A stretch of 64,000 nt of DNA from Nostoc sp. PCC 7107. GTDB lineage: Bacteria; Cyanobacteriota; Cyanobacteriia; Cyanobacteriales; Nostocaceae. Made by a program: the position numbers and the translations under genes. Where the stretch lies: contig NC_019676.1 in the NCBI RefSeq assembly GCF_000316625.1, positions 917,001 through 981,000 on the forward strand. The letters are read 5' to 3'. Below, piece after piece: positions 27,702 to 56,066 of the stretch. Every line of letters starts with the position of its first letter. Positions within the stretch are counted from its first letter, which is position 1. The notes beneath the pieces are model-generated. The model was given only the letters and a program-made list of their open reading frames with translations. It had not been told where the DNA came from and ran no database searches.

Positions 27702-28817
27702 TCAAGCTGATTTCTTATTTAGAATTTCTAGCCACCGTGAGACTAATTCATCCCATGAGTAGATTTTATCAGTGAGAATTTGAGACCGATCATATATCTG
27801 CGCGGCAATTAAAGCTTGATAAATACTACCAGCATCTCCTGGTTGATAGTAAAATACATTTGTTCTTGACGATACAAGATAAGCAGGAGCAACAATTGGT
27901 AGTTGACAATAACTATATTGAATAATTTTGAGACTATCAGTAAAACATTCAGCCCCAGGAGTATATGCTAGTGTCTGAAGTGCAATATCTGCATATTTAA
28001 TATAGGGTATTGTGGACTCAAATGGTAACTCTTGATAAGCAATAATATTATTTCTTTGAGGTAAATTATTCATTGGCCCAATTATATGAAATTGCCAATT
28101 TGGCAATAATTGACTAGCTTGTTCTAAAAAGTCGTAATCAAAATGAGCGTTACCGACAAAAACGACGTTAGGTGTATCTGAAACTGGGTAAGGATTGGCA
28201 TAATCCTGGTTAAATATATCTTTGCGAATGCCATGTAACTCTAATTCTAGATTAAGTAAACCTGCAAATAAACGGTAAATATATTGGCTGGGTACACTGA
28301 CTAAATCAAACTTGGGGGCGACTCGTTCCTCAGTGTCTAATACAACTGAGTGATTGCGTAAAAGGCGCAAGTCATCGGACACTCTATAGATAAACTGAGC
28401 TTGGGGATTAAGTTGTTTACATCGGTCAAATAGTAGTAAAGCTGGTGTACTCTCAAAGATAAATAAGTCAGTCTCTTTTAGTAGAGGTTCTACGGTTCCT
28501 AGAGGAAGTTGGCCGTACAAATTAAACAAACCACGGCTAAGATAATTGAGTAAATTAGAGCGCAGATTAGCCGGATGCCAAGGTGTAAACCAGACATAAC
28601 TCCAGAAATTTTTCCGTATTAGCTGAAGTTGGTTTGCTTCTTGCAATACAGGATAAGCTAGGCGGTAGTCTCTCCGAATTACAGACAACCAACTTAAGGC
28701 AGATGTGACAAAAATAACTTCCCAACCCTGATGCCAAAAAGCCTCAGCCAGCCAGTGAAAACCTGCTTTGCGTTTAGAATTCCAATAGTGTCCAGTCACT
28801 AAAACTACACGCTTCAT
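27702..28817 (-). CDS. Glycosyltransferase, GumK-like (GT70 type)
   Basis: A 371-residue GT-B enzyme. The N-terminus VVLVTGHYWNSKRKAGFHWLAEAFWHQGWEVIFVT and the block YRVSDDLRLLRNH fit GumK-like glycosyltransferases, which in xanthan synthesis transfer glucuronate. The C-terminal domain has VVFVGNAHFDYDFL, HIIGPM and SLKIIQYSYCQLPIVAP. A uronic acid donor would fit the sugar-nucleotide genes next door. It is the only gene of the locus on the minus strand, divergent from the WbpA-like gene, and begins 351 bases from it. Confidence 0.82.
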   Translation of the reverse strand: MKRVVLVTGHYWNSKRKAGFHWLAEAFWHQGWEVIFVTSALSWLSVIRRDYRLAYPVLQEANQLQLIRKNFWSYVWFTPWHPANLRSNLLNYLSRGLFNLYGQLPLGTVEPLLKETDLFIFESTPALLLFDRCKQLNPQAQFIYRVSDDLRLLRNHSVVLDTEERVAPKFDLVSVPSQYIYRLFAGLLNLELELHGIRKDIFNQDYANPYPVSDTPNVVFVGNAHFDYDFLEQASQLLPNWQFHIIGPMNNLPQRNNIIAYQELPFESTIPYIKYADIALQTLAYTPGAECFTDSLKIIQYSYCQLPIVAPAYLVSSRTNVFYYQPGDAGSIYQALIAAQIYDRSQILTDKIYSWDELVSRWLEILNKKSA

Positions 28818-29031
28818 AACTTACTGCATATCATCATAAATATTGTCCTCAAACTGCTAAACTAATACAGCTATGGCAATCAAATGAAAGCCGAAGTCAG
28901 TACTGTGTTCCCCTCTAGTTACCAATATCTTTTTTTACCTATTGAGTGATTAATATGGTAATAATAAATCAACTCAATGATAGGATAACTCTGTCTTCGC
29001 CTGCTGCGCCTAGTGTAGAGTAACTTTGACA

Positions 29032-29076
29032 GATTAAAAATAATTTTAATCCAGTATTGTGAAAACTTTCACAATA
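29032..29076. promoter_or_regulatory. Two adjacent palindromes, candidate operators
   Basis: In the divergent region of the polysaccharide locus, TATTGTGAAA at 29055-29064 and TTTCACAATA at 29067-29076 form a perfect 10-bp dyad with a 2-base spacer. Just before it, GATTAAAA at 29032-29039 and TTTTAATC at 29044-29051 form a second dyad. A half-site TTGTGAAAT recurs at 29109-29117. The dyad ends 92 bases before the WbpA-like start. A dimeric regulator of the whole locus is a reasonable inference; no known site is recognised. The remaining bases 28818-29168 hold no gene. Confidence 0.5.
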
Positions 29077-29168: not shown

Positions 29169-30515
29169 ATGATTATCCATAGAGCCATGTTGGAAAAGCC
29201 TTCTGTTTTATTAGCTTTACAAGAAAAGATTAGAACACATACAGCGATCGTTGGTGTTGTGGGGTTAGGATATGTAGGACTCCCGTTTGCTGTCGAAAAA
29301 GCCAAAGTTGGTTATCGGGTGTTGGGAATTGAGCAAAATCCCCAAAGGGCTGAAAAAGTCAACATGGCTGACAATTACATCACCGATATTAAAGATGAAG
29401 ATTTGAAACAAGTTGTGACTAGTGGGAATTTACAAGCAGTTTTGAATTTTGATCGTGTTGCCGAGATGGACGTAATTGTAATTTGCGTTCCCACCCCATT
29501 AACAAAAAATTTAACACCAAATTTGAGTTACATAGAAAGTGTGACTCATTCGATTGCCAAACGCTTACGACCAGGACAGTTAGTGACTTTAGAATCTACC
29601 ACCTATCCAGGCACTACGGATGAGGTGATGCGTCCGGTATTGGAACAAACCAGTGGTTTAAAGCAGGGAGAAGATTTCTTTCTCGCCCATTCACCAGAAC
29701 GGGTAGACCCTGGTAATCAGCGCTACACAACCAAAAATACTAATAAGGTAGTTGGTGCTTCGGATACTCATTCCCTGGAAGTAGCGACTTTATTCTATCA
29801 GCAGACTATTGACCATGTAGTACCAGTCAGTAGCGCTAAGGCAGCGGAATTAGTCAAGGTGTTTGAAAATACCTTTCGGGCTGTGAATATTGCCTTGGTG
29901 AATGAGTTGGCGTTATTGTGCGATCGCATCGATTTAAATGTTTGGGAAGTTTTAGACGCTGCCAATACCAAACCTTTCGGCATTATGCCCTTTTATCCTG
30001 GACCTGGTGTCGGTGGTCACTGCATCCCCATCGACCCCCATTATTTAGAATGGAAAGCCAAGGAAGTTAATTTTAATACCCACTTTATCGCCTTGGCAGG
30101 AGAAATCAATCGCTCCATGCCGTTGTTTGTCAGGGAAAAAGCTCGTAGAGTCTTGAATGATTTGGGTTTAGCCCCAGCGAAATCAAAAATTTTGGTAATC
30201 GGTACAGCTTACAAAAAAGACCTCGGTGATTGGCGAGAATCACCATCAATCATGGTAATTAATTATTTACTAGAAGATAAAATGACCGTGGCTTACCATG
30301 ATCCTTTTGTGCCGGAAATTGAAGTCAAAGGTCAAAATTTCACTAGTTTGCCCTTAACTGATGCGAATATTGCGGCGGCTGACTTGGTAATTATTGCCAC
30401 CGACCACAGTCAAGTAGATTATGTCAAGTTAGTCGCCAAAGCCAAAGCAGTTTTAGATACCAGAGGAATCACTCGACATCTGGATTGCCTGCACGATAAA
30501 GTAACTTTGCTGTAG
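29169..30515 (+). CDS. UDP-N-acetylglucosamine 6-dehydrogenase (WbpA-like)
   Basis: A nucleotide-sugar dehydrogenase of 448 residues that oxidises C6 of UDP-GlcNAc (or a close relative) to the uronic acid with two NAD. The NAD site GLGYVGLP is at 32-39. The catalytic cysteine is Cys285 in GPGVGGHCIPIDPHYL, and Lys230 with Asn234 sits in the AELVKVFENTFRAVNIA helix. The sequence type (HSPERVDPGN, KPFGIMPFYPGPG) is of the UDP-GlcNAc/ManNAc class rather than UDP-glucose. It opens the + strand run and is followed after 11 bases by the WbpB-like gene, so substrate assignment rests partly on context. Confidence 0.9.
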   Translation: MIIHRAMLEKPSVLLALQEKIRTHTAIVGVVGLGYVGLPFAVEKAKVGYRVLGIEQNPQRAEKVNMADNYITDIKDEDLKQVVTSGNLQAVLNFDRVAEMDVIVICVPTPLTKNLTPNLSYIESVTHSIAKRLRPGQLVTLESTTYPGTTDEVMRPVLEQTSGLKQGEDFFLAHSPERVDPGNQRYTTKNTNKVVGASDTHSLEVATLFYQQTIDHVVPVSSAKAAELVKVFENTFRAVNIALVNELALLCDRIDLNVWEVLDAANTKPFGIMPFYPGPGVGGHCIPIDPHYLEWKAKEVNFNTHFIALAGEINRSMPLFVREKARRVLNDLGLAPAKSKILVIGTAYKKDLGDWRESPSIMVINYLLEDKMTVAYHDPFVPEIEVKGQNFTSLPLTDANIAAADLVIIATDHSQVDYVKLVAKAKAVLDTRGITRHLDCLHDKVTLL

Positions 30516-30526: not shown

Positions 30527-31489
30527 GTGGTGACAAATTCAAGGCAAGCACAAGTAATTGTAGTTGGGGCGGGAAACTGGGGTAAAAACTTGGTGCGGAA
30601 TTTCCACACTTTAGGGGCGTTGGCAGGAGTAGCCGAAGCTCATCCTGGTTTACGAGAAGCGATCGCCACAACTTACCCAGATATTACTACATACAGTGAT
30701 TTTGCCGCAGCCTTAGCAACGGATGTCCCAGCATTAGTCTTAGCCACACCAGCACCTGGCCATTATGAATTGGCAATGGCAGCTTTACAAGCAGGCAAAG
30801 ATGTGTTTGTGGAAAAGCCAATGACACTGCGGACAGAGGAAGCTAGACAACTAGCGGAATACGCCGACAAACACGGGCGAATTTTAATGGTAGGACATTT
30901 ATTGTTATACCAGCCGGCGATCGCTTGGATGCGGAATTATCTCACTAGTGGTCAAGCGGGGAAAGTTATCCACGTCGCCGCCAGAAGATTGAAACTCGGC
31001 AAAGTCCGCAGCGAAGAAAATGTCTGGTGGTCATTTGCACCCCATGATGTTTCTGTAGTCTTAGACTTATTGGGCAACCCAAAATTGCAAAGCGTCCAAG
31101 CTCAAGGTCATGCTATCTTACAACCCAGTATTGAAGATTCTGTACAAGTTGACCTGCGTTTTGGCAGTGGTCAATCAGCCCAGATTCATTGTTCTTGGTA
31201 CTGGCCGTTAACAGAACGCAGCACCGTAGTGATTGCCGAAGCGCAGATGTTGGTTTACGATGAAGTCGCTCAAACTGTGACTATCCACCACAAACATATT
31301 GACCAAGATTTAAAACACTACGACCAAGGTAGTGAAATTGTGGAAGTAGCCGCATCAGAACCCCTGAAAATCGAGTGTCAACACTTTCTAGATTGTTTGC
31401 AAACCCGTCAAACCCCCCGTTCTGATGGGTGGAATGGTGTAGCCGTCGTGGAAATTTTAGAGGAGGCGCAGAAATCCCTACATGGCTAA
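30527..31489 (+). CDS. Gfo/Idh/MocA oxidoreductase (WbpB-like)
   Basis: A 320-residue NAD-dependent dehydrogenase, starting at GTG 30527. In the WbpB pathway it oxidises C3 of UDP-GlcNAcA so that an amino group can be added. The Rossmann motif [19 protein letters not shown] is at about 9-27, and the conserved FVEKPMTL is near residue 97. The YxxH-type C-terminal half includes [13 protein letters not shown]. The order between a UDP-sugar 6-dehydrogenase and an acetyltransferase-aminotransferase pair strongly supports this role. It overlaps the next gene by 8 bases. Confidence 0.88.
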
Positions 31490-32063
31490 TTATTTTGTAC
31501 ATGAATCCAGTTATGTGGATGAAGGCGCAGACATTGGCGAAGGTACAAAAATTTGGCATTTTTGCCACATCTTCGCCAAAGCGAAAATTGGACGGAACTG
31601 CATCTTCGGGCAGAATGTTTTAGTTTCTAATAACGTAGTTGTTGGTGATTATTGCAAAATTCAAAATAACGTCTCGCTGTACGAAGGCGTAATTTTAGAA
31701 GACTATGTTTTTTGCGGCCCCAGTATGGTCTTCACCAACGTCAAAACACCGCGTTGTGAATTTCCGCGCAATACCAGTAATGATTACCTAAAAACTTTGG
31801 TCAAGCGCGGTAGCAGTATTGGCGCAAATGCCACAATCGTTTGTGGTGTTACCTTACATGAATGTGCTTTTGTCGCCGCCGGCGCAGTGGTGACAAAAGA
31901 TGTACCAGCTTATGCAATGGTGGCTGGAGTACCCGCAAACATAATTGGGTGGATGAGTGCCTACGGAGATGTGCTACAGTTTGATGCTGATGGCTATGCT
32001 GTAGATTCTACAGGCACCAAATATCAACAAGTATCAGAGAAAGAAGTGATAAGGGTTTCATGA
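31482..32063 (+). CDS. Sugar-nucleotide N-acetyltransferase (WbpD-like)
   Basis: A hexapeptide-repeat acetyltransferase of 193 residues. Repeats of the left-handed beta helix run from about residue 12 ([20 protein letters not shown]) to 165 ([20 protein letters not shown]). The ending [14 protein letters not shown] is family-typical. WbpD-type enzymes acetylate the 3-amino group of UDP-GlcNAc(3NH2)A. The overlaps with both neighbours (8 bases upstream, 4 downstream) indicate translational coupling. Confidence 0.9.
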
Positions 32064-33295: not shown

Positions 33296-34309
33296 ATGGA
33301 TTTACAAGGCAAGCGGCTTTTAGTGATTGGTGGCGCTGGATTAATTGGATCTCACACAGTTGATCAACTACTAAAAGAAGATGTCGCAGAAATCCGCATT
33401 TATGATAATTTCACTCGCGGCAGACAAGAAAACTTAACTGAAGCTTTTAAAGACCCACGAGTTAATGTTTTTCCTTTAGGTGGTGAACTCCTCCACAGAG
33501 ATATTTTAGATCAGGCGATGAAAGGCATTGATGGAGTTTTTCATTTTGCCGCCCTGTGGTTATTGCATTGTTACGATTATCCCCGTTCTGCTTTTGAAGT
33601 TAATATTGGGGGTACCTTTAATGTTTTAGAAGCTTGTATTAATAATGGAGTACAAAAGCTAGTTTATTCTTCCTCGGCTTCTGTGTATGGTGATGCAATT
33701 GAAGAGCCAATGAGAGAAGACCATCCATATAACAATACCACTTTCTATGGGGCAACTAAAATAGCAGGCGAACATATATGTCGTTCTCTGTATCATCGCT
33801 ACAAAGGTACAGAAAAACATTTTGATTATGTGGGACTGCGGTATATGAATGTGTATGGGCCACGCCAAGATTATCAGGGTACTTATATTGCCGTAATTAT
33901 GAAAATTTTGGACAGACTAGATAAAGGATTACCCCCAGTAGTTTATGGTGATGGCTCACAAGCCTATGATTTTATCTACGTCGGAGATTGTGCTAGAGCT
34001 AACGTTTGTGCAATGAAATCAACTGCTACAGATGCTTTTTATAATGTTGGTACTGGTGTGAAAACTACTATTCAAGAATTAGCAGAGTTGATTTTAGAAG
34101 TTACCGGTTCTGACTTGAAAATTCAATATGAACCAGGTGGTCAAACCTTTGTAACCAACCGTGTAGGTTGTCCTCAAAAAGCATCTGCGGAAATTGATTT
34201 TGCAGCCAAATTACAACTTAAAGAAGGACTAGCGAAACTTATTGAATGGCGCAATAGTCACAAAGAAGAAGTCGCTAGTCGTCGCCGCGCAGTGGGAATA
34301 GCTGATTAA
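33296..34309 (+). CDS. NAD-dependent sugar epimerase/dehydratase
   Basis: An extended short-chain dehydrogenase of 337 residues acting on a nucleotide sugar. NAD-binding GGAGLIGSHT is at 12-21, the catalytic SSSASVYG block follows near 125-132, and YGATK gives the Tyr-Lys pair near 147-151. RYMNVYGPRQDYQG is typical of the UDP-glucose/UDP-glucuronate 4-epimerase group. The N-terminal FPLGGELLHRDILDQA is compact. The substrate is unknown; a C4 epimerase acting on the uronic acid or UDP-GlcNAc would fit the neighbours. Confidence 0.88.
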   Translation: MDLQGKRLLVIGGAGLIGSHTVDQLLKEDVAEIRIYDNFTRGRQENLTEAFKDPRVNVFPLGGELLHRDILDQAMKGIDGVFHFAALWLLHCYDYPRSAFEVNIGGTFNVLEACINNGVQKLVYSSSASVYGDAIEEPMREDHPYNNTTFYGATKIAGEHICRSLYHRYKGTEKHFDYVGLRYMNVYGPRQDYQGTYIAVIMKILDRLDKGLPPVVYGDGSQAYDFIYVGDCARANVCAMKSTATDAFYNVGTGVKTTIQELAELILEVTGSDLKIQYEPGGQTFVTNRVGCPQKASAEIDFAAKLQLKEGLAKLIEWRNSHKEEVASRRRAVGIAD

Positions 34310-34393
34310 ATCCTGATCAAATCATTCATAAGGTGAATGTGTATTACATCTAATCTAATTAATAATTAGGTGTAATATACATTGGCTGATGTA

Positions 34394-35752
34394 ATGAGTA
34401 TTAAATTAGTTCTTCGTCATCTTAAAAACCTATTCATTTTTTTTATTTTAGGTTTACTAGCAGTGTTTCTCTGGCCTAATTACGTCAACTACCAAAAGAC
34501 AGAAAATTACATTAAAAACTTTCAAATCGCTAAATATGAACGACAAGGTACAGATTTTTATAACCCTAAATATTCACCTTTAAGATTAGGAAAACCATTA
34601 GAAAAAATAGATATAACTTATGATTATGATTTTAATCGTCTGTTGAAGGTTGAACAAAAATTAAAAGGTGTCAATCGGAAAAAAGCCCTAAAATATATAT
34701 TTTTAGAAGTCACCAAAAATGCTCAAACGAATACAGAGAAACACATTACTTTGTTAAAATTTTTGCGTAGAAGTAGTTTGCATAATGCGTATTTACAACC
34801 AACTTACCCAGATAAGACACCAGTATTTGATCCGTTAATATTACTGGAATTAGGAGAAATGAGATGTGGTCATGGAGCTAGATTAGCTGTAGATTTGTTT
34901 AAAGCGGGTGGATACAAAGCTCGCTTAGTTCAAGCAGGAAACCATGTATTGGCTGAAGTATTTTATGAACAACAGTACCATTACTTTGATACAGATATTT
35001 TTACAGATGGAGAAACAGTTATAAAAAATGGCATCATACCTTCATTTGCACAACTCAGCCAAACGCCTTACTCAATAGACTCAGTAGCTGCATATCAAGA
35101 GGTATTTTTTAAAAGTTGGATAGATAAGGAGAAGGTAAAAGATGAAATAGAACAGATGCCATATAGATACATATATCCATCTTACTTTTATTTTTACCAA
35201 AAAGCTTATGAAGGTACATTACCTTATTACTATAAAAAAACTGCCAATGTAAAACAAGAACAAGATAAATTGTATGGGTGGAATTATTATAAAAGTGTTT
35301 TAGATAAAAAAAGAATTCTTCAGGAGAGTCAACCTATTTATTATGCTCCTACGGAAATTATATTTAAAAATATAGAAATTTTCCAGGATGAAAAAATAGA
35401 CAAAGTAATTCTAGAATGGGAGCCGAGTAAAGACTTTGATAACGATTTACTAGGTTATAAAATTTATATTTCTCAGCATCAAAGAGAATGGTCTTATAAC
35501 GAATGGAGAAGCGATAAAAAAGTAGAAAAATATTGGAGTAATAGAGGTGGTTGGAAACCAAAAATGTATAAATATCTTGATCAAGAGCCGCATCATGAAA
35601 TCAATTTACTTAAAACATCAGATACCAAGGTAGAATTATCATTGCCCAAACAAAATACTTATTATGTCTCTGTGATGCCTTATGATGCTCATGGTGAATC
35701 TGTAGGTAAGAAAGTTTATCCAATGTCTAATGAAATTAAACTTAAGTTATAA
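34394..35752 (+). CDS. Membrane-anchored transglutaminase-like protein with FnIII domain
   Basis: A 452-residue protein of no named family that I can assign. A single membrane segment (about residues 10-27, very hydrophobic) precedes a long extracytoplasmic part. A transglutaminase-like core carries the probable triad Cys158 (MRCGHGARLA), His184 (QAGNHVLAEV) and Asp199 (YFDTDIF), in the right order and spacing for the superfamily. The last 110 residues (VILEWEPSKDFDNDLLGYKIYIS, ending EIKLKL) resemble a fibronectin type III domain. ATG 34394 was chosen over TTG 34382. Base composition is AT-rich. It may cleave or crosslink amide bonds at the cell surface, but this is inference. Confidence 0.65.
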   Translation: MSIKLVLRHLKNLFIFFILGLLAVFLWPNYVNYQKTENYIKNFQIAKYERQGTDFYNPKYSPLRLGKPLEKIDITYDYDFNRLLKVEQKLKGVNRKKALKYIFLEVTKNAQTNTEKHITLLKFLRRSSLHNAYLQPTYPDKTPVFDPLILLELGEMRCGHGARLAVDLFKAGGYKARLVQAGNHVLAEVFYEQQYHYFDTDIFTDGETVIKNGIIPSFAQLSQTPYSIDSVAAYQEVFFKSWIDKEKVKDEIEQMPYRYIYPSYFYFYQKAYEGTLPYYYKKTANVKQEQDKLYGWNYYKSVLDKKRILQESQPIYYAPTEIIFKNIEIFQDEKIDKVILEWEPSKDFDNDLLGYKIYISQHQREWSYNEWRSDKKVEKYWSNRGGWKPKMYKYLDQEPHHEINLLKTSDTKVELSLPKQNTYYVSVMPYDAHGESVGKKVYPMSNEIKLKL

Positions 35753-47014: not shown

Positions 47015-48670
47015 ATGACTGACATAGAATTAAATAATTCTTTTCAATGGATTAAAGAATTTCAACAAAAACATGGACGTAAACCAAGTATTCTACACAT
47101 AGGTAACATTGCCAATAATGCTTATAATAACGCCAAACTTTTAAATAAAATAGGATTTGATTGTGATGTTATATGTTATGACTACTACCACATTATGGGT
47201 TGCCCAGAATGGGAAGACGCAGATTTTGAAGGAGAAATAAAAGACCAGTTTTTTCCTGATTGGAATGCAGTAACTTTACAAGAATTTCAACGCCCTAAAT
47301 GGTTTGCTCAAGGCTATATAATGTATTGCTTGTTTTATTTAACAGCAAAACGTCAAAATAAAGCACTATTAGCATGGTTTTGGTGGCAGATATTAGAAAT
47401 TGGCAGATTTTATCGCTGTTCAATGAATGGGCTTTTATATGCGATTATTTCTCCAATTATAAAATTATTAAAACTTGCAAAGCAGATTATCTTTATTAAA
47501 AATCACATTCTCAGCTTGATTAATCAAAAATTTCATAGCCTCTTATCCAGAAAACCTGTTAAGAAAATACTTGAGTTTTTCAAAAAAAATATTAAGTTAG
47601 CTCAACAAAAAAATAATTTCAATAAAGTTTCTGAAATTAGCAAATTTGATGAAAGAGTTCAGGAAATAATTGAAATATTTAAACATAAGTTTCCTGAGCG
47701 TCAAGACCAATTAGTTTCTGAAGATTTAGCAGGCTATCGTTATATTTTTCCATTTTGGAAAAAGCTTTTTGAGAACTATGATATTATCCAAGGCTATTCT
47801 ACAGATCCTATTTTACCCTTACTAACACAACATCCCTATTTTGCATTTGAACACGGAACACTAAGAGACATTCCTTTTGAAACCACAGCACGAGGAAGAC
47901 TAACATCTATTGCATATAGTCAAGCTGAACATGTTTTTGTCACGAACTCAGACTGCATCAGTAACGCAATTTTATTAGCCGGTAAAAATGTTTCTGGGAT
48001 GAATCATCCCTATGATGAAAATCATGGATTGCAAGTAAAAGGTTGGCAAGAACTCAGACAAAAACTCTGTCAACAATTGGATGCAGATTTTCTGTTTTTC
48101 TTTCCTACACGTCATGATTGGGTAGCTGGAACAGGATATGCAGATAAAGGCAATGAAATATTCTTAAATGCCTTTTGTAATCTTCGTCAAGCTGGTTATA
48201 AAGTTGGATTGGTTTGTTGTATGTGGGGAGCCAATGTCCAAGATAGTATTAAATTACTAACTGAAAAAGATTGCGCTGATTTCGTTTTTTGGAGCCAGCC
48301 AATGGGAAATGTAAAATTTGAAAGAACAGCTAAAGCTTCTCATGTGGTAGTTGATCAGTTTAAACTTGGCTCTTTTGGTGGCATTGTGTTTAAAGCAATG
48401 GCAGTTGCTGCTCCTGTTTGTACTTATATTAAAGAAGATGATATTCTCAAACAATATAGTGAATTACCACCTGTAATCAACTGTAAAAGTGAAGATGAGA
48501 TTTTTCGTAAAATGGAAGATATTATTAAAAATCCAGACAAGTTAATCTATTTATCATCATTATCAAAAAGCTGGATTGATAAACATCATAGCTCATGGGA
48601 TACATTAAAAACGCAAGTACTTGCCTATGAAGCTTTCTTAAATAAAAGAGGTTTTTTACCAAAGTTATAA
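47015..48670 (+). CDS. Glycosyltransferase-like protein, altered EX7E group
   Basis: A 551-residue protein related to the gene at 40345: both share HIGNIANNAYNNAKLLNKIG- or similar N-terminal features and an EWEDADFEGE-like segment. A hydrophobic and basic stretch at about residues 130-200 suggests membrane contact. The C-terminal block VVVDQFKLGSFGGIVFKAMAVAAPV near 447 has DQ and a Gly in place of the first Glu of EX7E; here the second Glu is Lys. Activity may be altered or lost. ADFVFWSQPMGNVKF and FFFPTRHDW mark the nucleotide-binding half. Donor unknown. Confidence 0.7.
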   Translation: MTDIELNNSFQWIKEFQQKHGRKPSILHIGNIANNAYNNAKLLNKIGFDCDVICYDYYHIMGCPEWEDADFEGEIKDQFFPDWNAVTLQEFQRPKWFAQGYIMYCLFYLTAKRQNKALLAWFWWQILEIGRFYRCSMNGLLYAIISPIIKLLKLAKQIIFIKNHILSLINQKFHSLLSRKPVKKILEFFKKNIKLAQQKNNFNKVSEISKFDERVQEIIEIFKHKFPERQDQLVSEDLAGYRYIFPFWKKLFENYDIIQGYSTDPILPLLTQHPYFAFEHGTLRDIPFETTARGRLTSIAYSQAEHVFVTNSDCISNAILLAGKNVSGMNHPYDENHGLQVKGWQELRQKLCQQLDADFLFFFPTRHDWVAGTGYADKGNEIFLNAFCNLRQAGYKVGLVCCMWGANVQDSIKLLTEKDCADFVFWSQPMGNVKFERTAKASHVVVDQFKLGSFGGIVFKAMAVAAPVCTYIKEDDILKQYSELPPVINCKSEDEIFRKMEDIIKNPDKLIYLSSLSKSWIDKHHSSWDTLKTQVLAYEAFLNKRGFLPKL

Positions 48671-48682: not shown

Positions 48683-49804
48683 ATGAAAAAAGAATTAATT
48701 TCCTACCTAGATAAACTATCTCAAGATGTTGAATTTATTCCCTTCAAATTAGAGAAAGCAGAAGTTATTGAGGGGATTATCAAAAGCAATTATCAGACTT
48801 GGTATCCAGTATTCAGAGGTGTACCTTGTTTTTTACAGGGAACATTAAAACCTGATTTAAAATGGTTTGAAGAAAAGTACAGCCTAAGTGCGATTGCTGA
48901 TGAAGGTGAACAAGAATCAGCTAAAGATCAACGGTTAACTAACGAAACATTCTCTGATAAATGGAGTCGTTTTCGCAATTACGGATTAGAATCTAGCCAT
49001 CAAGAATTTTTATACGAATGGTATTGCAAAAAACTTGGGATTCCTAATTTAGAAAAACTCCAAGCTTTTTATCATCAATTTGATCGGATTTTGGAAGTTG
49101 GCCCTGGTTCTGGCTTTAACACAAAATTTATTTCCGAAAATACCAAAGGACAAGTTTTTGCAGTCGATATCTCTGAAGCAGCCTTCACTACATTTGAAAA
49201 TACAAAACATTTACCAAACTGTCATGTAGTTCAGGCTGACTTAATGGATATGCCATTTAGTGATAACTTTTTTGATTTTATCATTGCAGATGGCGTACTT
49301 CACCATACTCCTAATACTAAAAAAGCTTTATTTGCAATTTATAGCAAACTCAAGCCCGGTGGGCAGTTATTTTTTTATGTTTATAAAAAAATGGGAGCGG
49401 CCCGTCAATTTTGTGACCAATATATTAGAGAATCATTTACAAACCTTGATCCAGAGTCTTGCTACAAAGCTTGTGAAGGACTAACTGAGTTAGGGCGAGA
49501 ATTAAATCATCTCAACGCTAAAATTACCTTAAATCAACCTATTCCCATTCTTGGTATACCTGCTGGTACTCATGATGTCCAAAGACTGATTTATTACAAC
49601 TTTGTAAAATGTTTTTGGAATGACGCATTTGACTTCGAGACCAATAATATGGTCAACTTTGACTGGTATCATCCTCATAATGCTTGGCAACATACAGAAG
49701 AAGAAGTTAAAGAATGGCTGCAAGAATTAGGAGTTCACGATTATCAATTTAATCCTGCAAATCCCAATGGAATTTCTGTTCTTTTAACGAAGCCAGTCTT
49801 GTGA
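48683..49804 (+). CDS. SAM-dependent methyltransferase
   Basis: A class I methyltransferase of 373 residues. The N-terminal 50 residues (ending WYPVFRGVPCFL) resemble a Trm112-like segment common in glycan methyltransferases. The AdoMet motif ILEVGPGSGFN is at 136-146, VFAVDIS gives the acidic motif, and DGVLHHTPNTKKALFAIYSKLKPGGQLF follows. It probably O-methylates the glycan, either internally or as a chain-end cap. It overlaps the next gene by 4 bases. Confidence 0.87.
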   Translation: MKKELISYLDKLSQDVEFIPFKLEKAEVIEGIIKSNYQTWYPVFRGVPCFLQGTLKPDLKWFEEKYSLSAIADEGEQESAKDQRLTNETFSDKWSRFRNYGLESSHQEFLYEWYCKKLGIPNLEKLQAFYHQFDRILEVGPGSGFNTKFISENTKGQVFAVDISEAAFTTFENTKHLPNCHVVQADLMDMPFSDNFFDFIIADGVLHHTPNTKKALFAIYSKLKPGGQLFFYVYKKMGAARQFCDQYIRESFTNLDPESCYKACEGLTELGRELNHLNAKITLNQPIPILGIPAGTHDVQRLIYYNFVKCFWNDAFDFETNNMVNFDWYHPHNAWQHTEEEVKEWLQELGVHDYQFNPANPNGISVLLTKPVL

Positions 49805-50988
49805 AAAAAATCTTTAGGCTCGTTTATGACTTTTTATCTATCGGGGTGATATTTCTAGTCATACTTTTATCACCCTTAAGATTTATTTATAAAAAGTTAA
49901 CTTCATCTCAAATTAAAAGCTTGTGGTTGGGGACACCTATTATTACTTTAGCTTTTAAAGCCAAGGCCGAGCGACTGTTAGGAATAAAAGCTAGGTCATT
50001 AGTTTACGAAACCTATTTTATCACCCAAAGTTTTGACTACAATTTGAGCCAATTGACTCGCATTCCGTTGGTAGGTAAATTAACTTCATTATTTATTTTT
50101 GTGTGGGCTTGTTTTTGGGCTGATCGGCTTCATTTATACTGCGATCGCGGGTTACTTTTATCTTGGAAACCTTTACAAATAAATTTTAGAGAATTATTCG
50201 TTTATAAATTACTAGGTATACACATTTTTTTCTGGACGTATGGTGCTGATGTTCGCAGTCAACAAGCTACACAAATGCTGGGAGAACCGAATTGTTGTGT
50301 AGAATGTGATGCCGTTGGTAAAGCTTGTATTTGTGATGACAATAGACGAATAAACTATGTAAATAAGCTTAAAAAATACGCTACTGCCATTTTTTCTATG
50401 GGAGATATGATTGAATACACTCCCGGTAGTCTCAACAGTTTGTTTTTTTGGCCGGTTGATTTGCATGGCATCAACTCTGAAAAATATCAACCTGCATATC
50501 CTGAACTCAATAAAACTCAACCTTTGCGTGTTGTTCATGCACCAAATCATAGAAAATTTAAAGGAACTCACTTCTTGATTGAAGCGGTAAAAAATCTTCA
50601 GCTTGCAGGTGTTTCTATAGAACTAATTCTTGTAGAAAAGATGCCTAATGAACAAGCATTGGAAATATATAGAACTGCCGATGTTATTTTTGATCAGTGC
50701 TTAATTGGCTTTCATGGCTATTTTGCTCTTGAAGGTATGGCAATGGGTAAGCCGGTGATGTGTTTTATTAGAAAACCACAGGAGTATCTATTGTATCCAG
50801 AAGAATGTCCAATTATTAATACACATATTCAGACTTTAGAAAAAGACTTACGTGAATTAGTTAATCATAGGGAAAAATTACCAGAAATTGGCATAAAAAG
50901 TAGACAATATATAGAGAAATACTTTACTTTAGAAGCTTTTGCCCAGAGGTTACAGAAAGCTTATCAAGATTTAGGAATAGCCAGATGA
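49801..50988 (+). CDS. Glycosyltransferase with cysteine cluster, altered EX7E group
   Basis: A 395-residue protein starting at GTG 49801. A membrane segment lies at about 12-30. GT4-like features are LRVVHAPNHRKFKGTHFLIEA and VIFDQCLIGFHGYFALEGMAMGKP, with DQ at 298-299 and Gly where the first Glu of EX7E belongs. Between them is a tight cysteine cluster, Cys165, Cys166, Cys169, Cys176 and Cys178, after GADVRSQQ and before NRR. The gene at 51888 has a matching arrangement. Metal binding is inferred. It overlaps both neighbours by 4 bases. Confidence 0.78.
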   Translation: MKKIFRLVYDFLSIGVIFLVILLSPLRFIYKKLTSSQIKSLWLGTPIITLAFKAKAERLLGIKARSLVYETYFITQSFDYNLSQLTRIPLVGKLTSLFIFVWACFWADRLHLYCDRGLLLSWKPLQINFRELFVYKLLGIHIFFWTYGADVRSQQATQMLGEPNCCVECDAVGKACICDDNRRINYVNKLKKYATAIFSMGDMIEYTPGSLNSLFFWPVDLHGINSEKYQPAYPELNKTQPLRVVHAPNHRKFKGTHFLIEAVKNLQLAGVSIELILVEKMPNEQALEIYRTADVIFDQCLIGFHGYFALEGMAMGKPVMCFIRKPQEYLLYPEECPIINTHIQTLEKDLRELVNHREKLPEIGIKSRQYIEKYFTLEAFAQRLQKAYQDLGIAR

Positions 50989-51878
50989 AAATACTAATTG
51001 TTGGGTATAAAGGTTTTATTGGTAAATATTTATTTAATCACCTAAAATTACTGGGTGCAGATGTGTATGGAATTAGTTCTTCTGAGAAAAATGGGATTGA
51101 TGGAGAAACTGGTATTTTATCAGAGCAATTTACTATTAGTCCAGGAACTGATGCTGTTATCTACTTAGCGCAATCGCCATACTATCGTCAAATTCCAGAA
51201 AAGGCTACTCATTTATTAAATGTGAATGTAATTAGTGCGGTAAAAATGGTAGAAATAGCACGTAAAGCTAAAGTGCCACGCTTTATTTATACTTCTACTG
51301 GTAATGTTTATACACCAAGCTTTCAACCTCTAATCGAAACGTCTTCTCTTAATATAAATAACTGGTATTCTCTGAGCAAAATTCATGCAGAGGAAGCACT
51401 AGCGCTCTTTCGTAATGATATGGATATTACTATAACTAGGTTATTTGGTGTTTATGGCCCTGGACAAACTGATAAGCTAATTCCTCGATTAATTAACACT
51501 ATATTACAAGGCAATAAAATTTTTCTTGAAAGAAATCAAAATGATATCAATGATTTAGATGGGTTAAAACTATCTATGATTTATATCTATGACCTTGTTG
51601 AAATTCTAACAGAACTTTTAAGAAAATCTTTTAATCATTATTTACTTAATATATCAAGTCAAGAAGTTCTTACTTTAAGAGAAATTGCTAATAAAATTGC
51701 GATTTTCTCTCAAAAACAAGTCAATATTGAACTAGCAGATAAAATTCGCTATTTTGATTTAATTGCTGATACAACATTATTAAACCAAGCATTAAGCCCA
51801 ATTTTTACTCCTTTTAATATTGGTATTGAGAAAACCATTATGCAATCTCTACATCCAACTAATCATTGTGAGAGGTAA
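50985..51878 (+). CDS. NAD-dependent epimerase/dehydratase
   Basis: A 297-residue extended short-chain dehydrogenase. The NAD motif is GYKGFIGKYL at about 7-16, SSTGNV-type active-site region TSTGNVYTP near 105-113, and YSLSK (Tyr-Lys pair) near 126-130; RLFGVYGPGQTDKLIPRLI follows. It is shorter than the first epimerase and of a different subgroup, so it probably acts on another sugar nucleotide. The start overlaps the preceding glycosyltransferase by 4 bases. Confidence 0.86.
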   Translation: MKILIVGYKGFIGKYLFNHLKLLGADVYGISSSEKNGIDGETGILSEQFTISPGTDAVIYLAQSPYYRQIPEKATHLLNVNVISAVKMVEIARKAKVPRFIYTSTGNVYTPSFQPLIETSSLNINNWYSLSKIHAEEALALFRNDMDITITRLFGVYGPGQTDKLIPRLINTILQGNKIFLERNQNDINDLDGLKLSMIYIYDLVEILTELLRKSFNHYLLNISSQEVLTLREIANKIAIFSQKQVNIELADKIRYFDLIADTTLLNQALSPIFTPFNIGIEKTIMQSLHPTNHCER

Positions 51879-51887
51879 AATATTATC

Positions 51888-52961
51888 TTGAAAGTTCTGC
51901 ATTTACCTACATCAGTTGGGGGCAATTCTTGGGGTTTAGCTCAAGGTGAAAAAGCATTAGGATTAGATAGTACAGTTTTAATCTCGCAACAAAATTGGTT
52001 AGAATACCCTGCTGATATTAATCTGAATATTCAAAAAATAAAACCGAAAGCTGGGCGTTTTTTAAAGTTAGCCTTAGCTTTTATGAACATCAGAAATAAA
52101 TATGATGTTTTTCACTTTAATTTTGGCTCATCATTAATTCATTTCCCTAATAGTCATCTCAATCAGTTTGAACTGCCATTTTACCCAGAGAATGCTAAAC
52201 TATTTGTTACTTATAACGGTTGTGATATTAGACAAAAATATCCCACTATGCAGAGAACACAAATAGCTGCTTGTCATAATTCCAACTGTTATCAAGGGCA
52301 ATGTAATTCTGGTCATCTAGACAATTATAGACGTGTAGGCTTACAAAAAATGGAGCCTCATGTTAAACATATTTGGGCATTAAATCCTGATTTACTTTAT
52401 TTCCTCCCACCAAATAAGTCATCGTTTTTACCTTATTCACTCAGTTTTGCAGGAATTGATTTGTTTTCTCCACGATTAAATAATAAAAAACTCAAAATTG
52501 TTCATGCACCAACGAATAGAGAAGCCAAGGGAAGTACTTATATTTTGGCAGCTTTAGAAAAATTACAACAGACTCATGCAGAATATATAGAGGTGTGTCT
52601 AGTAGAAAATGTACCTCATGCACAAGCTATAGAAATTTATCAACAAGCAGATTTAATCATCGATCAAATTCTTATCGGTTGGTATGGGGGATTTGCAGTG
52701 GAAGCAATGCAGATGGGAAAACCTGTAATCGCTAGAATCGCACAGGAAGATTTACATTTTTTACCTGAACAAATGGCATCTGATGTTTTAGAAACTATTA
52801 TTAATGCTGATCCAAATAATATTTATGAAGTTATCCGACAATGTGTCGAAGATAGGAAGATATTGCTACAACATTCGGTAGCTGCTTTGCAATATGTGAA
52901 TAAGTGGCATGAGCCAAAATATGTAGCTAGTTTAACAAAAGAAAAGTATGAATCGAGTTGA
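51888..52961 (+). CDS. Glycosyltransferase with cysteine cluster, altered EX7E group
   Basis: A 357-residue GT-B-like protein from TTG 51888. It shares with the gene at 49801 the motifs NGCDIRQK, a cysteine cluster (Cys112, Cys129, Cys134, Cys139) ahead of NYRR, KIVHAPTNREAKGSTYILAALEKLQ, and LIIDQILIGWYGGFAVEAMQMGKPVI with DQ at 259-260. The first Glu of EX7E is again Gly. The two are clearly paralogues with one short-chain dehydrogenase gene between them. N-terminal HLPTSVGGNSWGLAQGEKALG resembles the acceptor loop of GT4 enzymes. Confidence 0.8.
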   Translation: MKVLHLPTSVGGNSWGLAQGEKALGLDSTVLISQQNWLEYPADINLNIQKIKPKAGRFLKLALAFMNIRNKYDVFHFNFGSSLIHFPNSHLNQFELPFYPENAKLFVTYNGCDIRQKYPTMQRTQIAACHNSNCYQGQCNSGHLDNYRRVGLQKMEPHVKHIWALNPDLLYFLPPNKSSFLPYSLSFAGIDLFSPRLNNKKLKIVHAPTNREAKGSTYILAALEKLQQTHAEYIEVCLVENVPHAQAIEIYQQADLIIDQILIGWYGGFAVEAMQMGKPVIARIAQEDLHFLPEQMASDVLETIINADPNNIYEVIRQCVEDRKILLQHSVAALQYVNKWHEPKYVASLTKEKYESS

Positions 52962-52970: not shown

Positions 52971-54905
52971 ATGTGTGGGATTGCAGGGATACTACTAGGG
53001 AGCAAGTCACAGGTTGATGCCAGTATTTTAAAATCTATCGGTCATTGTTTGAGCGATCGCGGCCCTGATGACTTTGGCTTCTTGGGTTGGTCAGAAACTA
53101 GATCTGTCTCTATTTCCCGCAATTCGCAAACGCTAGAAAATAGCCAACTTTACTTACTACACCGTCGCTTGTCTATTCTTGACTTGAGTGAAGCTGGCTG
53201 GCAACCAATGGGAACAGCCAACGGCAGATATTACATTGTTTTTAACGGGGAGATTTACAACTATCTAGAATTACAAACTCAGTTACAAACTTTAGGGCAT
53301 CAATTTCAATCTCATTCAGATACAGAAGTTTTACTGGCTGCATATACTGAATGGGGTGTCAATGCCTTGAGTAAGTTTGTAGGAATGTTTGCCTTTGCCA
53401 TCCTTGATACTTGGGAACGCACTCTATTTTTAGCCCGTGATTTTTTTGGCATTAAACCGCTTTATTATACTTACTGGCAAGATGGAATAGCTTTTGCTTC
53501 CGAAATTAAAGCCCTGCTGCAACTCCCTGGTATTAGCCGCAGTGTTAATCCGCTGCGAGTATATGACTATCTACAATCTGGATTAACAGACTATGGAAGT
53601 GAAACTCTGTTTGCTGATATTCAGCAACTACAACCGTCCCATTTTCTGAAAGTCTCTTTAGCAAATCCTCAAAAGCCACAAATTTCCCGTTACTGGCAAA
53701 TAGAGTTAAATCAGACTTTAGATATTACATTCCCCGAAGCTACAGAACACCTACGCCACCTATTTTTAGAAAGTGTTGGGCTACATTTACGTAGTGATGT
53801 ACCAGTAGGTGCAGCCCTATCAGGAGGGATAGATTCTTCGGCCATTGTTATGGCGATGCGACATTTACAAGGCAACAACTTACAACTGCATACATTTAGT
53901 TATATTGCTTCAGAACCTTCTTTGAGCGAAGCAAAATGGGTAGAGACAGTAGCACAGGCAGCTGCTGTCATAGAACATCAAGTCAAACCATCTCCTGAAG
54001 AACTAATAACAGACCTCGACAAACTGATTGAACTACAAGATGAGCCTTTTGGTAGCACTAGCATCTATGCTCAATATCGAGTGTTTCAATTGGCAAAAGC
54101 AGCCAATATCAAGGTGATGTTAGATGGACAAGGAGCAGATGAACTCTTGGGAGGCTACCGCGCCTATTTGGCGACACGGTTTGCTTCTTTACTACGTCAA
54201 GGACAATGGGGAAAAGCCAGCGAATTTTTACAAAAAGCCTTAAAGCTACCGGGAACTAGTCAACGAACTATCTTACTTCGTGCTGTCGGACTTCTCTTAC
54301 CACCTAGTTTGCAAGCACCAGCCAGACAGTTAGTTAAAAAAGATGTTTTCCCTAATTGGTTAAATTATCATTGGTTTACCAAACATGGTATTGAGCCTAA
54401 AGTTTATTACAGCAAACAAGCGCAAGAAATATTGCGGGCAGAACTTCATCAAGCTGTAGTCGAAAATAGCTTGCCGATGTTGTTGCGCTATGAAGACCGC
54501 AACTCTATGGCACACTCTATTGAAAGCCGAGTTCCTTTTCTTACACCAGCTATAGTAAATTTTGTTTTTTCTTTACCAGAAGAATTTATTATTGCCAATG
54601 ATGGTACTTCCAAAGCTATTTTTCGTGAAGCAATGCGGGGTATTGTTCCCGACATAATATTAAATCGTAAAGATAAAATCGGCTTTGCTACACCTGAACA
54701 AAGCTGGCTAAAAGTCTTAAGTCCGTGGGTAGAAAATGTGCTAAATAGTGAAATGGCAGCCCAAATTCCCGCTCTGAATGTACAACAGATGCAAACAGAT
54801 TTTCAAGCAGTTCTCGCAGGGAAATCAGCATTTGATTTTCGCATTTGGCGTTGGGTAAATTTAATCCGCTGGGCGGAAAATTTAGCTGTGACTTTTGAGC
54901 AATAA
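52971..54905 (+). CDS. Asparagine synthase (glutamine-hydrolysing) type amidotransferase, copy 2
   Basis: A second class II amidotransferase, 644 residues. Cys2 in MCGIAGILLG is the glutaminase nucleophile, with YNGEIYN-type block FNGEIYNYLELQ further on. The PP-loop is SGGIDS at 284-289, and DGQGADELLGGYRAY and RDKIGFATPEQSWL are present. It differs enough from copy 1 (about 17 kb upstream in the same locus) that each probably amidates a different residue or sugar. A housekeeping asparagine synthetase role cannot be excluded. Confidence 0.92.
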   Translation: MCGIAGILLGSKSQVDASILKSIGHCLSDRGPDDFGFLGWSETRSVSISRNSQTLENSQLYLLHRRLSILDLSEAGWQPMGTANGRYYIVFNGEIYNYLELQTQLQTLGHQFQSHSDTEVLLAAYTEWGVNALSKFVGMFAFAILDTWERTLFLARDFFGIKPLYYTYWQDGIAFASEIKALLQLPGISRSVNPLRVYDYLQSGLTDYGSETLFADIQQLQPSHFLKVSLANPQKPQISRYWQIELNQTLDITFPEATEHLRHLFLESVGLHLRSDVPVGAALSGGIDSSAIVMAMRHLQGNNLQLHTFSYIASEPSLSEAKWVETVAQAAAVIEHQVKPSPEELITDLDKLIELQDEPFGSTSIYAQYRVFQLAKAANIKVMLDGQGADELLGGYRAYLATRFASLLRQGQWGKASEFLQKALKLPGTSQRTILLRAVGLLLPPSLQAPARQLVKKDVFPNWLNYHWFTKHGIEPKVYYSKQAQEILRAELHQAVVENSLPMLLRYEDRNSMAHSIESRVPFLTPAIVNFVFSLPEEFIIANDGTSKAIFREAMRGIVPDIILNRKDKIGFATPEQSWLKVLSPWVENVLNSEMAAQIPALNVQQMQTDFQAVLAGKSAFDFRIWRWVNLIRWAENLAVTFEQ

Positions 54906-54953
54906 ATGACCAAATATACAAATATCGTACCAAACTGATCGCCACTGACTCTG

Positions 54954-56066
54954 GTGGAGTTCAGACGAAACATTTTTTATTTATTAACCAACGTGCATAA
55001 TCGTTTACTTATTAATCTGTCATTTCTGTTAAATCGCCCCACCGGAACTACAACATACGCCCTCAATTTACTGCCTTACTTACAAAAACTGCACCCAATA
55101 CTGTTAGTTGCAGAAAATATTACTGGTTATGAATGCCATGCAGTTCCCCGTGGACAAACCGCAGAACAAGGTGCAAAAGGCCATCTCCACCGCCTATTAT
55201 GGACACAATTTCAATTGCCAAGAATTTATCAGCAGTTGAAATCCCAAGTTCTGTTTTGTCCTTTACCGGAAGCGCCTTTATCTGTCGAATGCAGTTCTGT
55301 TGTGATGTTTCATGACTTGATACCCTTGCGCTTTCCTAAACGCTTTTCACCGGTAACGCTCTATCAGCGCTACTACGTTCCTCAAGTGCTTAGGCAAGCA
55401 AAACACATTGTTTGTAATTCTCAGGCTACGGCTGACGATATTGTTGATTTTTACAGAATTCCAGCTAGTAAAATTACCCCTATTCCCCTAGCGCACGATC
55501 GCACTCATTTTCGCTATCTCAATTTACCAACCCGCAACTACTTTCTCTACATCGGTAGACAAGACCCTTATAAAAATTTACAACGCCTCATCAGTGCCTT
55601 TGCTGCACTCCCCAACAATAGTGATTATGAACTATGGTTAGCTGGCCCCACCGATGCACGTTACACGCCAGTTTTACAGGTGCAAGTTGAAGAATTGGGG
55701 ATAACTCATCAAGTAAAGTTTCTCAACTATATTGATTATCAAGAATTACCAATAACTATTAATCAAGCGATCGCACTTGTGTTTCCCAGTCTTTGGGAAG
55801 GCTTTGGTTTCCCTGTTTTAGAAGCAATGGCCTGTGGTACACCAGTCATCACCTCTAACCTTTCTTCTCTACCGGAAGTCGCAGGAGATGCAGCAATTCT
55901 CGTTAATCCCTACAACACGGCAGAAATTACCGAGGCGATGCAGTTGATTGCTACAGATGCTCAATTGCGATCGCATCTGTCTACTCAAGGTATGGCCAGA
56001 GCTAATTTATTTAGTTGGGAAAAAACTGGTAAAGCAACAGTTGAAGTTTTATCACGCTATCTCTAA
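54954..56066 (+). CDS. Glycosyltransferase family 4 protein
   Basis: A 370-residue retaining GT-B enzyme with the standard motif: [27 protein letters not shown], with both Glu residues of EX7E. N-terminal [14 protein letters not shown] forms the acceptor loop, and [15 protein letters not shown] starts the donor domain. The GTG at 54954 gives this length; homologues suggest a start nearer the GTG at 54993 ([13 protein letters not shown]). It is the last gene of the locus and differs from the altered EX7E group. A mannosyl- or similar transferase is likely. Confidence 0.9.

What the first reader, a model, noticed from the sequence alone, without database searches (positions are those of the whole stretch)
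27702..56066. A 28 kb ABC-exported glycan locus predicted to make an amino-uronic, amidated and sulfated polymer
Seen: a continuous + strand run with a WbpA-WbpB-WbpD-WbpE-like series, two more DegT aminotransferases, two class II amidotransferases, a FemAB-like transferase, a methyltransferase, sulfotransferase plus CysC, six glycosyltransferases and a Wzm/Wzt pair. Known: WbpA-E make UDP-2,3-diacetamido uronic acids, and AsnB-type proteins in O-antigen loci amidate uronic acids. Inference: the product is an acidic glycan with diacetamido uronic acid, uronamides and sulfate, a mix I do not know from a described cyanobacterial polymer.
Basis: partly seen in the sequence, partly recalled or inferred. 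Interest (0 to 1): 0.72.

Follow-up and report, generated by a model that had tools for sequence, protein, structure and literature searches.

The report
Swappable capped sugar-coat export locus
A cyanobacterium related to Nostoc carries a 22-gene cassette, at a chromosomal site where most of its close relatives carry different ones, that is predicted to build and export a surface sugar chain of amidated diamino-uronic acids, likely tipped with an amino acid and sulfate; if so, the exporter and the enzymes that finish the chain tip would be swapped between strains as one unit.

Summary
The listed enzyme families are present with intact motifs. Between arsA and an S1-domain gene, all 11 genomes of the genus held carry a Wzm/Wzt-type locus with differing interiors: a serotype-like exchange site. 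Three relatives carry this locus, one of them altered. Another (G157) keeps both outer gene blocks at 80-98% identity but has a swapped middle: Wzm, the Wzt C-terminus and decorating enzymes differ together (here DegT2/FemAB/sulfotransferase/CysC/DegT3, there formyltransferase plus WbmS-like deacetylase). Best reading: an ABC-exported, O-antigen-type chain of amidated 2,3-diacetamido uronic acid, whose tip likely carries a 4-amino, aminoacylated, sulfated group recognised by Wzt. Closest in logic are the Bordetella wbm locus and the Porphyromonas Wbp/Vim pathway; the combination with sulfation was not seen in the paper listings searched. Wbp chemistry is well supported; amidation and sulfation are likely; cap placement and aminoacylation are inferences. 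New variant of a known kind.

The parts
27702..28817 (-). GumK-like glycosyltransferase, divergently transcribed; present at the site exactly where wbpABDE is present
   Evidence: Pfam GumK_N 217.5 bits; 6 of 6 wbp+ loci have it, 0 of 6 wbp- loci
29169..30515 (+). WbpA-like UDP-sugar 6-dehydrogenase
   Evidence: GPGVGGHC motif
30527..31489 (+). WbpB-like Gfo/Idh/MocA 3-dehydrogenase (best NCBIfam UDP-GlcNAc 3-dehydrogenase, 149 bits, below cutoff 450)
31482..32063 (+). WbpD/WlbB-like N-acetyltransferase
   Evidence: PDB 3mqg 195 bits
32060..33229 (+). WbpE-like C3-type aminotransferase
   Evidence: PDB 7b0d, 2oga, 3frk, WbpE 3nu7
33296..34309 (+). SDR1, C4-epimerase-type nucleotide-sugar SDR
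   Evidence: PDB 6dnt, WbgU, WbpP; YGATK
34382..35752 (+). transglutaminase-like protein with C-terminal FN3 domain and N-terminal hydrophobic helix; function unknown, likely membrane-anchored
35791..37662 (+). AsnB1, AsnB/WbpS-type amidotransferase, predicted uronamide synthase
37698..38525 (+). Wzm-type ABC-2 permease
38522..40300 (+). Wzt-type ATPase with a long C-terminal part (two strand-rich regions by eye in the model; Wzt_C at 446-544), predicted to recognise the glycan end
40345..41991 (+). GTa, GT4-type glycosyltransferase with an N-terminal stretch of variable length; candidate terminator
41996..43048 (+). DegT2 aminotransferase; reduced to a remnant in Anabaena sp. 4-3
43038..44117 (+). 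FemAB/GNAT-type transferase, related to the group that VimA matches; predicted N-aminoacyl transferase
44121..45128 (+). Sulfotransferase_3, PAPS-type motif GTQRSGST
45134..45772 (+). CysC, APS kinase; only close APS kinase of the genome
45773..46915 (+). DegT3, C4-type aminotransferase (perosamine synthetase/ArnB group)
47015..48670 (+). GTb, glycosyltransferase related to GTa
   Evidence: BLAST E 6e-16 to GTa
48683..49804 (+). class I methyltransferase
49801..50988 (+). GTc, glycosyltransferase
50985..51878 (+). SDR2, nucleotide-sugar epimerase/dehydratase-type SDR
51888..52961 (+). GTd, glycosyltransferase
52971..54905 (+). AsnB2, second AsnB-type amidotransferase
54954..56066 (+). GTe, GT4 glycosyltransferase conserved at this site in all 11 genus genomes
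25908..27062 (-). arsA-like flank, one conserved border of the exchange site
57005..57907 (-). S1-domain gene, other conserved border

Best explanation
This is a locus whose interior differs between relatives at a fixed chromosomal site, predicted to make an ABC-exported, O-antigen-type glycan of amidated 2,3-diacetamido uronic acid whose growing end likely receives a 4-amino, aminoacylated and sulfated cap that the Wzt C-terminal domain would recognise as the signal for export. Inferred steps: (1) WbpA/WbpB/WbpE/WbpD convert UDP-GlcNAc to UDP-2,3-diacetamido-glucuronic acid; SDR1 would change C4; AsnB1 (and AsnB2) would convert the carboxylate to a uronamide. (2) GumK-like and GTa-GTe enzymes would polymerise this on a lipid carrier. 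(3) Tip sugar: DegT3 (and DegT2) would place an amine, the FemAB/VimA-type protein an amino acid on it, the methyltransferase a methyl group, and the sulfotransferase a sulfate from PAPS supplied by CysC. (4) Wzt's C-terminal part would bind that finished tip and let Wzm export the chain. Shown directly: gene content, motifs, differing interiors between fixed borders, and joint difference of exporter plus decorating enzymes in G157 while the outer blocks stay alike.
Against: Nothing here separates a tip group from a group on every repeat. The methyltransferase stays with the outer block in G157, not with the exporter. AsnB1 and SDR1 persist in G157 without DegT3, so the triad is not obligatory. 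G499 has FemAB- and DegT3-like genes (39%, 47%) but two Wzts without this C-terminus, and no relative of this sulfotransferase in the 38 kb seen, so the Wzt end does not follow FemAB and DegT3 alone. DegT2 is decayed in Anabaena sp. 4-3 while FemAB is kept. No enzyme making a 4-keto substrate for DegT2/DegT3 is identified in the locus. FemAB scores far below the TIGR03019 cutoff (92.5 vs 260) and may move another acyl group. No entry named WlbA is among the 8 PDB hits of WbpB at E<=1e-10. The WecB/WbpI-like epimerase of sister loci is missing here. Only one clear swap (G157) and few independent lineages underlie the covariation. LPS attachment is untested.
Confidence: 0.5

Rival explanations
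1. Same locus and same sugars, but the sulfate, amino acid and extra amine decorate every repeat (or side branches); the Wzt C-terminal domain changes with the decorations only because whole blocks recombine together.
For: Six glycosyltransferases suit a complex repeat; linked blocks can recombine at the G157 junctions regardless of function. Several O antigens with aminoacyl groups on repeat sugars are listed in PMC10609480 (passages).
Against: The Wzt ATPase domain is alignable across the site while its C-terminus follows the decorating genes; in CBM-bearing Wzts described so far the C-terminus reads the chain end (PMC11231755).
Confidence: 0.3
2. The AsnB/FemAB/Wbp genes make a linking sugar that anchors proteins (Wbp/Vim or exosortase type), not a polymer cap; the transglutaminase-like protein would take part in attachment.
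For: FemAB and AsnB1 match the XrtA/PEP-CTERM families TIGR03019 and TIGR03108; Wbp/Vim linking sugar precedent (PMC7468200); two exosortases in the genome.
Against: Scores below curated cutoffs (92.5 vs 260; 477 vs 817); exosortases lie over 1.6 Mb away; five glycosyltransferases and a Wzm/Wzt pair in the operon; TGase absent from the Anabaena sp. 4-3 locus.
Confidence: 0.08
3. The glycan is diacetamido-uronic and amidated but not sulfated: the sulfotransferase acts on another molecule and CysC is merely the housekeeping APS kinase that happens to sit here.
For: CysC is the only close APS kinase of this genome, so it likely serves general metabolism; the Anabaena sp. 4-3 locus keeps the sulfotransferase without CysC.
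Against: The sulfotransferase lies inside the operon with 3 and 5 bp gaps, is conserved in all four loci of this type and found in only 4 of 192 family genomes at E<=1e-20.
Confidence: 0.12

Closest known systems
Bordetella wbm O-antigen locus
   Same: Diacetamido uronic acid polymer (PMC2279256 abstract); mid-locus genes predicted to modify the terminal sugar, exchanged by recombination between serotypes, with lower GC (PMC3849452 section 3); one novel wbm locus has predicted formyltransferase, aminotransferase, methyltransferase and asparagine synthase genes (PMC12243275 section 17). Sister loci here carry PF22537 'WbmS-like' deacetylases.
   Different: No sulfotransferase or CysC mentioned in the passages read; this genome has no WbmS-like match and the locus no formyltransferase; different phylum. 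Bordetella proteins were not compared directly. The triamino-uronamide nature of the Bordetella cap is recalled, not read.
Porphyromonas/Tannerella Wbp/Vim linking-sugar pathway
   Same: WbpA/B/D/E plus VimA, which matches TIGR03019, plus (in P. gingivalis) a WbpS-type amidotransferase (PMC7468200 abstract, passages, section 20)
   Different: There the amine is proposed to come from deacetylase VimE and the sugar links proteins; here all 22 ORFs are assigned to other families, DegT2/DegT3 are present, plus sulfotransferase and ABC exporter
Synechan (xss) cluster of Synechocystis 6803
   Same: Cyanobacterial sulfated polysaccharide with in-cluster sulfotransferases
   Different: Wzx/Wzy route, neutral sugars plus sulfate (PMC8205485 passages)
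ABC-dependent O antigens with chain terminator and Wzt carbohydrate-binding module (Klebsiella/E. coli, Aquifex Wzm-Wzt)
   Same: Wzm/Wzt with C-terminal beta domain; fold match to 8dku
   Different: C-terminal part is about 345 residues with two strand-rich regions in the model and no convincing PDB relative by sequence (best E 0.38); sugars and decorating enzymes differ

Membership tests
Wbp (diacetamido uronic acid) pathway | WbpA-, WbpB-, WbpE- and WbpD-type enzymes together | tested here: met
   order A-B-D-E
Wbp (diacetamido uronic acid) pathway | WbpB of the WlbA subgroup | tested here: inconclusive
   Gfo/Idh/MocA family met; no entry named WlbA among 8 PDB hits at E<=1e-10; best NCBIfam 149 bits under cutoff 450
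Wbp (diacetamido uronic acid) pathway | WbpI-type 2-epimerase (needed for the manno form only) | tested here: inconclusive
   no tblastn hit in the window; present in the G157, G026, G039 loci; elsewhere in this genome not searched
ABC-dependent O-antigen export with CBM | Wzm plus Wzt with C-terminal beta domain | tested here: met
   Wzt_C 46.8 bits; model and 8dku match
ABC-dependent O-antigen export with CBM | domain binds the chain end; export needs it | not testable with these tools
   only covariation shown
Wbp/Vim aminoacyl-sugar pathway | FemAB-type protein of the group VimA matches, with WbpS-type amidotransferase and Wbp enzymes | tested here: inconclusive
   TIGR03019 92.5 bits and TIGR03108 477 bits, both below curated cutoffs; VimA and WbpS themselves not aligned
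Wbp/Vim aminoacyl-sugar pathway | VimE-type deacetylase in the locus | tested here: not met
   all 22 ORFs fall in other families; WbmS-like family has no match in this genome. VimE itself not searched genome-wide
XrtA/PEP-CTERM amidotransferase and FemAB equivalogs | score above curated cutoff | tested here: not met
   477.1 vs 816.9; 92.5 vs 260.35
Bordetella wbm-type capped O antigen | mid-locus genes differ between fixed outer genes | tested here: met
   (G157 against the window)
Bordetella wbm-type capped O antigen | those genes act on the terminal sugar | not testable with these tools
   needs chemistry
Sulfated polysaccharide cluster | PAPS-type sulfotransferase in the glycan operon | tested here: met
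   Sulfotransfer_3 39 bits, cutoff 27; GTQRSGST
Sulfated polysaccharide cluster | sulfate in the polymer | not testable with these tools
   needs chemistry
Transglutaminase-like superfamily (34382) | Pfam cutoff and Cys-His-Asp triad | tested here: inconclusive
   16.1 bits vs cutoff 23; C 60/60, H 59/60, D203 46/60 with E 13/60

The most novel reading that the evidence does not exclude
Exporter and cap are one exchangeable 'cap-and-gate' cassette: Wzm, the Wzt recognition domain, a ruler-bearing terminator glycosyltransferase and the tip-modifying enzymes move together between otherwise constant glycan backbones. In this lineage the tip is a sulfated, N-aminoacylated, 4-amino diacetamido-uronamide, and the amine that the FemAB/VimA-type enzyme needs is supplied either by an aminotransferase (DegT2, here) or by a WbmS-like deacetylase (Anabaena sp. 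4-3, where degT2 is decayed and a deacetylase-like gene stands in the locus), two alternative routes to the same acceptor.
Probability: 0.25. Interest if true: 0.75.

Novelty: new variant of a known kind. Interest (0 to 1): 0.55.

Why it matters
It predicts a structure for a class of cyanobacterial surface polymers whose genetics and chemistry are rarely connected, and it turns a general question - how ABC exporters know that a chain is finished and how new serotypes stay exportable - into a testable natural experiment: G157 and this strain share the outer gene blocks but differ in exporter and decorations. Such surface chains are likely phage receptors and set charge and metal binding of cyanobacterial mats (recalled background).

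Tried and rejected
Megablast of 35791-56066 against plasmids: no match. PDB sequence searches for the Wzt C-terminus, FemAB and the TGase profile gave no useful relative (best for FemAB 6snr, lipid II:glycine glycyltransferase, E 0.005). For the TGase model, the 50 Foldseek rows shown (of 1052 at E<=10) are mostly FN3-bearing or similar beta-sandwich chains, plus one transglutaminase 2 entry (3s3j, E 1.7e-3, rmsd 28, uninformative); VIA-align rows cover residues 321-456, the FN3 part, so the N-terminal domain was not tested by fold. Housekeeping reading of CysC: not excluded, since it is the only close APS kinase in this genome. Exosortase link: two exosortases exist but are unlinked. A paper search for triamino uronamide pathways found no paper with 4 of its 5 terms. 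Database breadth: 1258 FemAB relatives at E<=1e-15 exist (best 120 listed), so the FemAB type is common in wider databases although rare in the cyanobacterial genomes sampled. Alignments used part of the homologs: A1 has the window plus 59 of the 92 listed proteins (one of the 92 is the window's own), A2 the window plus 42 of 46. Proteins of the Desulfobacterales contig L014 were compared by tblastn and family models only.
Full report
WHAT IS THERE. The window is G000:C1:917001-981000 of a 6.33 Mb single-contig genome. Its relatives in the same genus include the genome that holds the contig of Nostoc sp. LEGE 06077 (same 133,274-base contig length). From 29169 to 56066 there are 22 + strand ORFs with gaps of -11 to 99 bp, compatible with one operon. 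The GumK-like gene 27702-28817 is divergent. The listed families were confirmed by Pfam, NCBIfam and PDB searches, with catalytic motifs intact. GC is 0.441 in wbpABDE, 0.393 in SDR1, 0.33-0.36 across TGase-GTd and 0.41-0.42 in asnB2 and GTe.

ENZYME ASSIGNMENTS. WbpD is the clearest (PDB 3mqg, 195 bits; that this is WlbB is recalled). WbpE groups with C3-type aminotransferases (2oga, QdtB 3frk, WbpE 3nu7; the C3 label is recalled), whereas DegT3 is closest to perosamine synthetase and ArnB, which aminate C4 (recalled), and DegT2 is less clear (7b0d, 3bn1). SDR1 resembles C4 epimerases (6dnt, WbgU, WbpP; C4 recalled). WbpB is a Gfo/Idh/MocA protein whose best NCBIfam model is UDP-GlcNAc 3-dehydrogenase but below cutoff; no entry named WlbA is among its 8 PDB hits at E<=1e-10. 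Three glycosyltransferases lack Pfam matches above cutoff but are joined to the others by BLAST.

AN EXCHANGE SITE. arsA (25908-27062) and the S1-domain gene (57005-57907) lie on the same contig in 11 of 11 genus genomes held, about 14.3 to 31.5 kb apart. All 11 interiors hold a Wzm/Wzt-type pair and GTe; wbpABDE with gumK occur in 5 of 11 (G000, G072, G136, G157, G026) and in Anabaena sp. 4-3; gumK is absent from the 6 of 6 loci without wbpABDE. The sulfotransferase was found in 4 of 192 family genomes at E<=1e-20 and the FemAB protein in 3 of 386 sampled phylum genomes at E<=1e-10, so the module is rare among sampled cyanobacteria, although FemAB relatives are numerous in wider databases (1258 at E<=1e-15). 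The whole locus is collinear in G072 and G136 and, with changes, in Anabaena sp. 4-3.

THE INFORMATIVE SWAP. G157 shares both outer blocks with the window (wbpABDE-SDR1-TGase-asnB1 at 87-98%, MT-GTc-SDR2-GTd-asnB2-GTe at 80-89%), but the middle differs: Wzm 61%, Wzt alignable in the ATPase half only apart from 57 residues, then a methyltransferase, a GTb-like protein (40%), a formyltransferase (91 bits) and a WbmS-like deacetylase (56.6 bits) in place of GTa-DegT2-FemAB-sulfotransferase-CysC-DegT3-GTb. Across 13 other Wzts (10 genus, Anabaena 4-3, two in G499), the ATPase domain aligns in 13 of 13; residues 250-592 align along their length in 3 (G136 93%, G072 86%, G039 62%), over 57 residues in G157 (E 8e-4), and not in 9, three of which are only 244-248 aa long and have no C-terminal domain. 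The 3 are those whose loci have FemAB, sulfotransferase and DegT3 together. G499 is the awkward case: FemAB-like and DegT3-like genes but other Wzt C-termini, and no relative of this sulfotransferase in its 38 kb. G000, G072 and G136 are close relatives, so this is few independent events, and linkage alone could produce it; but together with the described role of Wzt C-termini in reading the finished chain end (PMC11231755, passages) it makes a cap-recognition model the best single explanation.

ANABAENA SP. 4-3. Here the TGase and CysC genes are absent from the locus, degT2 is reduced to stretches matching nt 1-183 and 1001-1051 back to back, and a methyltransferase plus a 470-aa protein with a weak WbmS-like match (30.5 bits, cutoff 27) sit between wzt and GTa. 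FemAB, sulfotransferase and DegT3 are kept. I read this as an exchange of amine sources for the FemAB enzyme; it remains a hypothesis, since loss of one gene and presence of the other may be unrelated. It also counts against DegT2 being essential.

A RECURRING TRIAD. AsnB1 relatives (E<=1e-200) occur in 9 of 386 sampled phylum genomes. In the 7 outside the family, SDR1-, DegT3- and AsnB1-like genes stand in that order: directly adjacent in G499, G209, G391, G513, G385; with two ORFs between DegT3 and AsnB1 in G441 and a methyltransferase between in G235. WbpD is found in 8 of 8 AsnB1+ genomes tested (these 7 plus Anabaena 4-3), including G441 and G209 where it lies on another contig; for comparison, 5 of 11 genus genomes have it. 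G499 adds FemAB, formyltransferase, WbmS-like deacetylase and two Wzts. A Desulfobacterales contig has DegT, formyltransferase, AsnB (67% to AsnB1), FemAB (35%) and methyltransferase (34%) in a row. Against a strict triad: G157 has SDR1 and AsnB1 but no DegT3.

COMPARISON WITH THE KNOWN. Porphyromonas and Tannerella make 2-N-seryl or -glycyl, 3-N-acetyl uronic sugars with WbpA/B/E/D, VimE, VimA and (in P. gingivalis) WbpS; [quoted passage not shown]). The window's FemAB and AsnB1 match the same two models below cutoff. Bordetella wbm makes a diacetamido-galacturonic polymer (PMC2279256: abstract, section 3), with mid-locus genes predicted to modify the terminal sugar and repeated exchange in the locus (PMC3849452: section 3 and passages); a novel wbm locus has predicted formyl-, amino- and methyltransferase and asparagine synthase genes (PMC12243275: section 17). 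Synechan is sulfated but Wzx/Wzy-made from neutral sugars; its authors noted sulfotransferases in cyanobacterial ABC-type clusters (PMC8205485: passages). By titles and abstract starts, none of the listed papers describes this locus or a polymer with this combination (11 of 11 listed; 18: 2 of 2; 66: 3 of 3; 82: 12 of 16; 83: 12 of 97; 108: 8 of 23); subscription papers are mostly not covered.

VERDICT. Observation right apart from one strand; interpretation right in kind, incomplete in mechanism. Confidence (my estimates): Wbp precursor pathway about 0.85, uronamide about 0.7, sulfated product about 0.75, aminoacylation about 0.5, terminal placement with Wzt recognition about 0.5.

Noticed in passing
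45134-45772: The CysC inside the glycan operon is the only close APS kinase of the genome (one of two PF01583 hits, the other 29 bits in a 524-aa ORF); G072 and G136 likewise have one close copy, this one; other genus members have theirs on other contigs or beside GTe.
   Followed up: partly
27403-27694: Remnants of two ORFs that are longer between arsA and gumK in G072 (305 and 244 aa); here only fragments match.
   Followed up: no
54905-54954: Sister loci G157, G026 and Anabaena 4-3 carry a WecB/WbpI-like 2-epimerase (TIGR00236, 333-336 bits) between asnB2 and GTe; it is missing here, which could mean a gluco/galacto rather than manno backbone sugar.
   Followed up: partly
40345-40530: GTa orthologs (548, 565, 559, 546 aa) differ visibly in a Gln/Glu/Leu-rich N-terminal stretch, reminiscent of a short coiled-coil chain-length ruler (by eye).
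   Followed up: no
34382-35752: Transglutaminase-like/FN3 protein in a glycan operon; G157 carries two tandem copies, the Anabaena 4-3 locus none; a homolog in Tumidithrix helvetica is on a contig of the same length (259185) as a Wzt with this C-terminal type.
   Followed up: partly
L013:9771-10004: degT2 of Anabaena sp. 4-3 is an internally deleted remnant while a deacetylase-like gene stands upstream.
   Followed up: yes
56474-56959: Conserved 161-aa ORF without Pfam match next to GTe at 10 of 11 genus sites.
   Followed up: no
G125, G098, G144, G161 sites (L039-L040, L043-L047): A CysC-like gene (59-61% to the window's) lies on the strand opposite to the locus beside GTe in four relatives that have no sulfotransferase of this type at the site.
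   Followed up: no
L061, L062 (G000:C1:2670924 and 4881934): Two exosortase-family proteins in the genome, unlinked to the locus.
   Followed up: no
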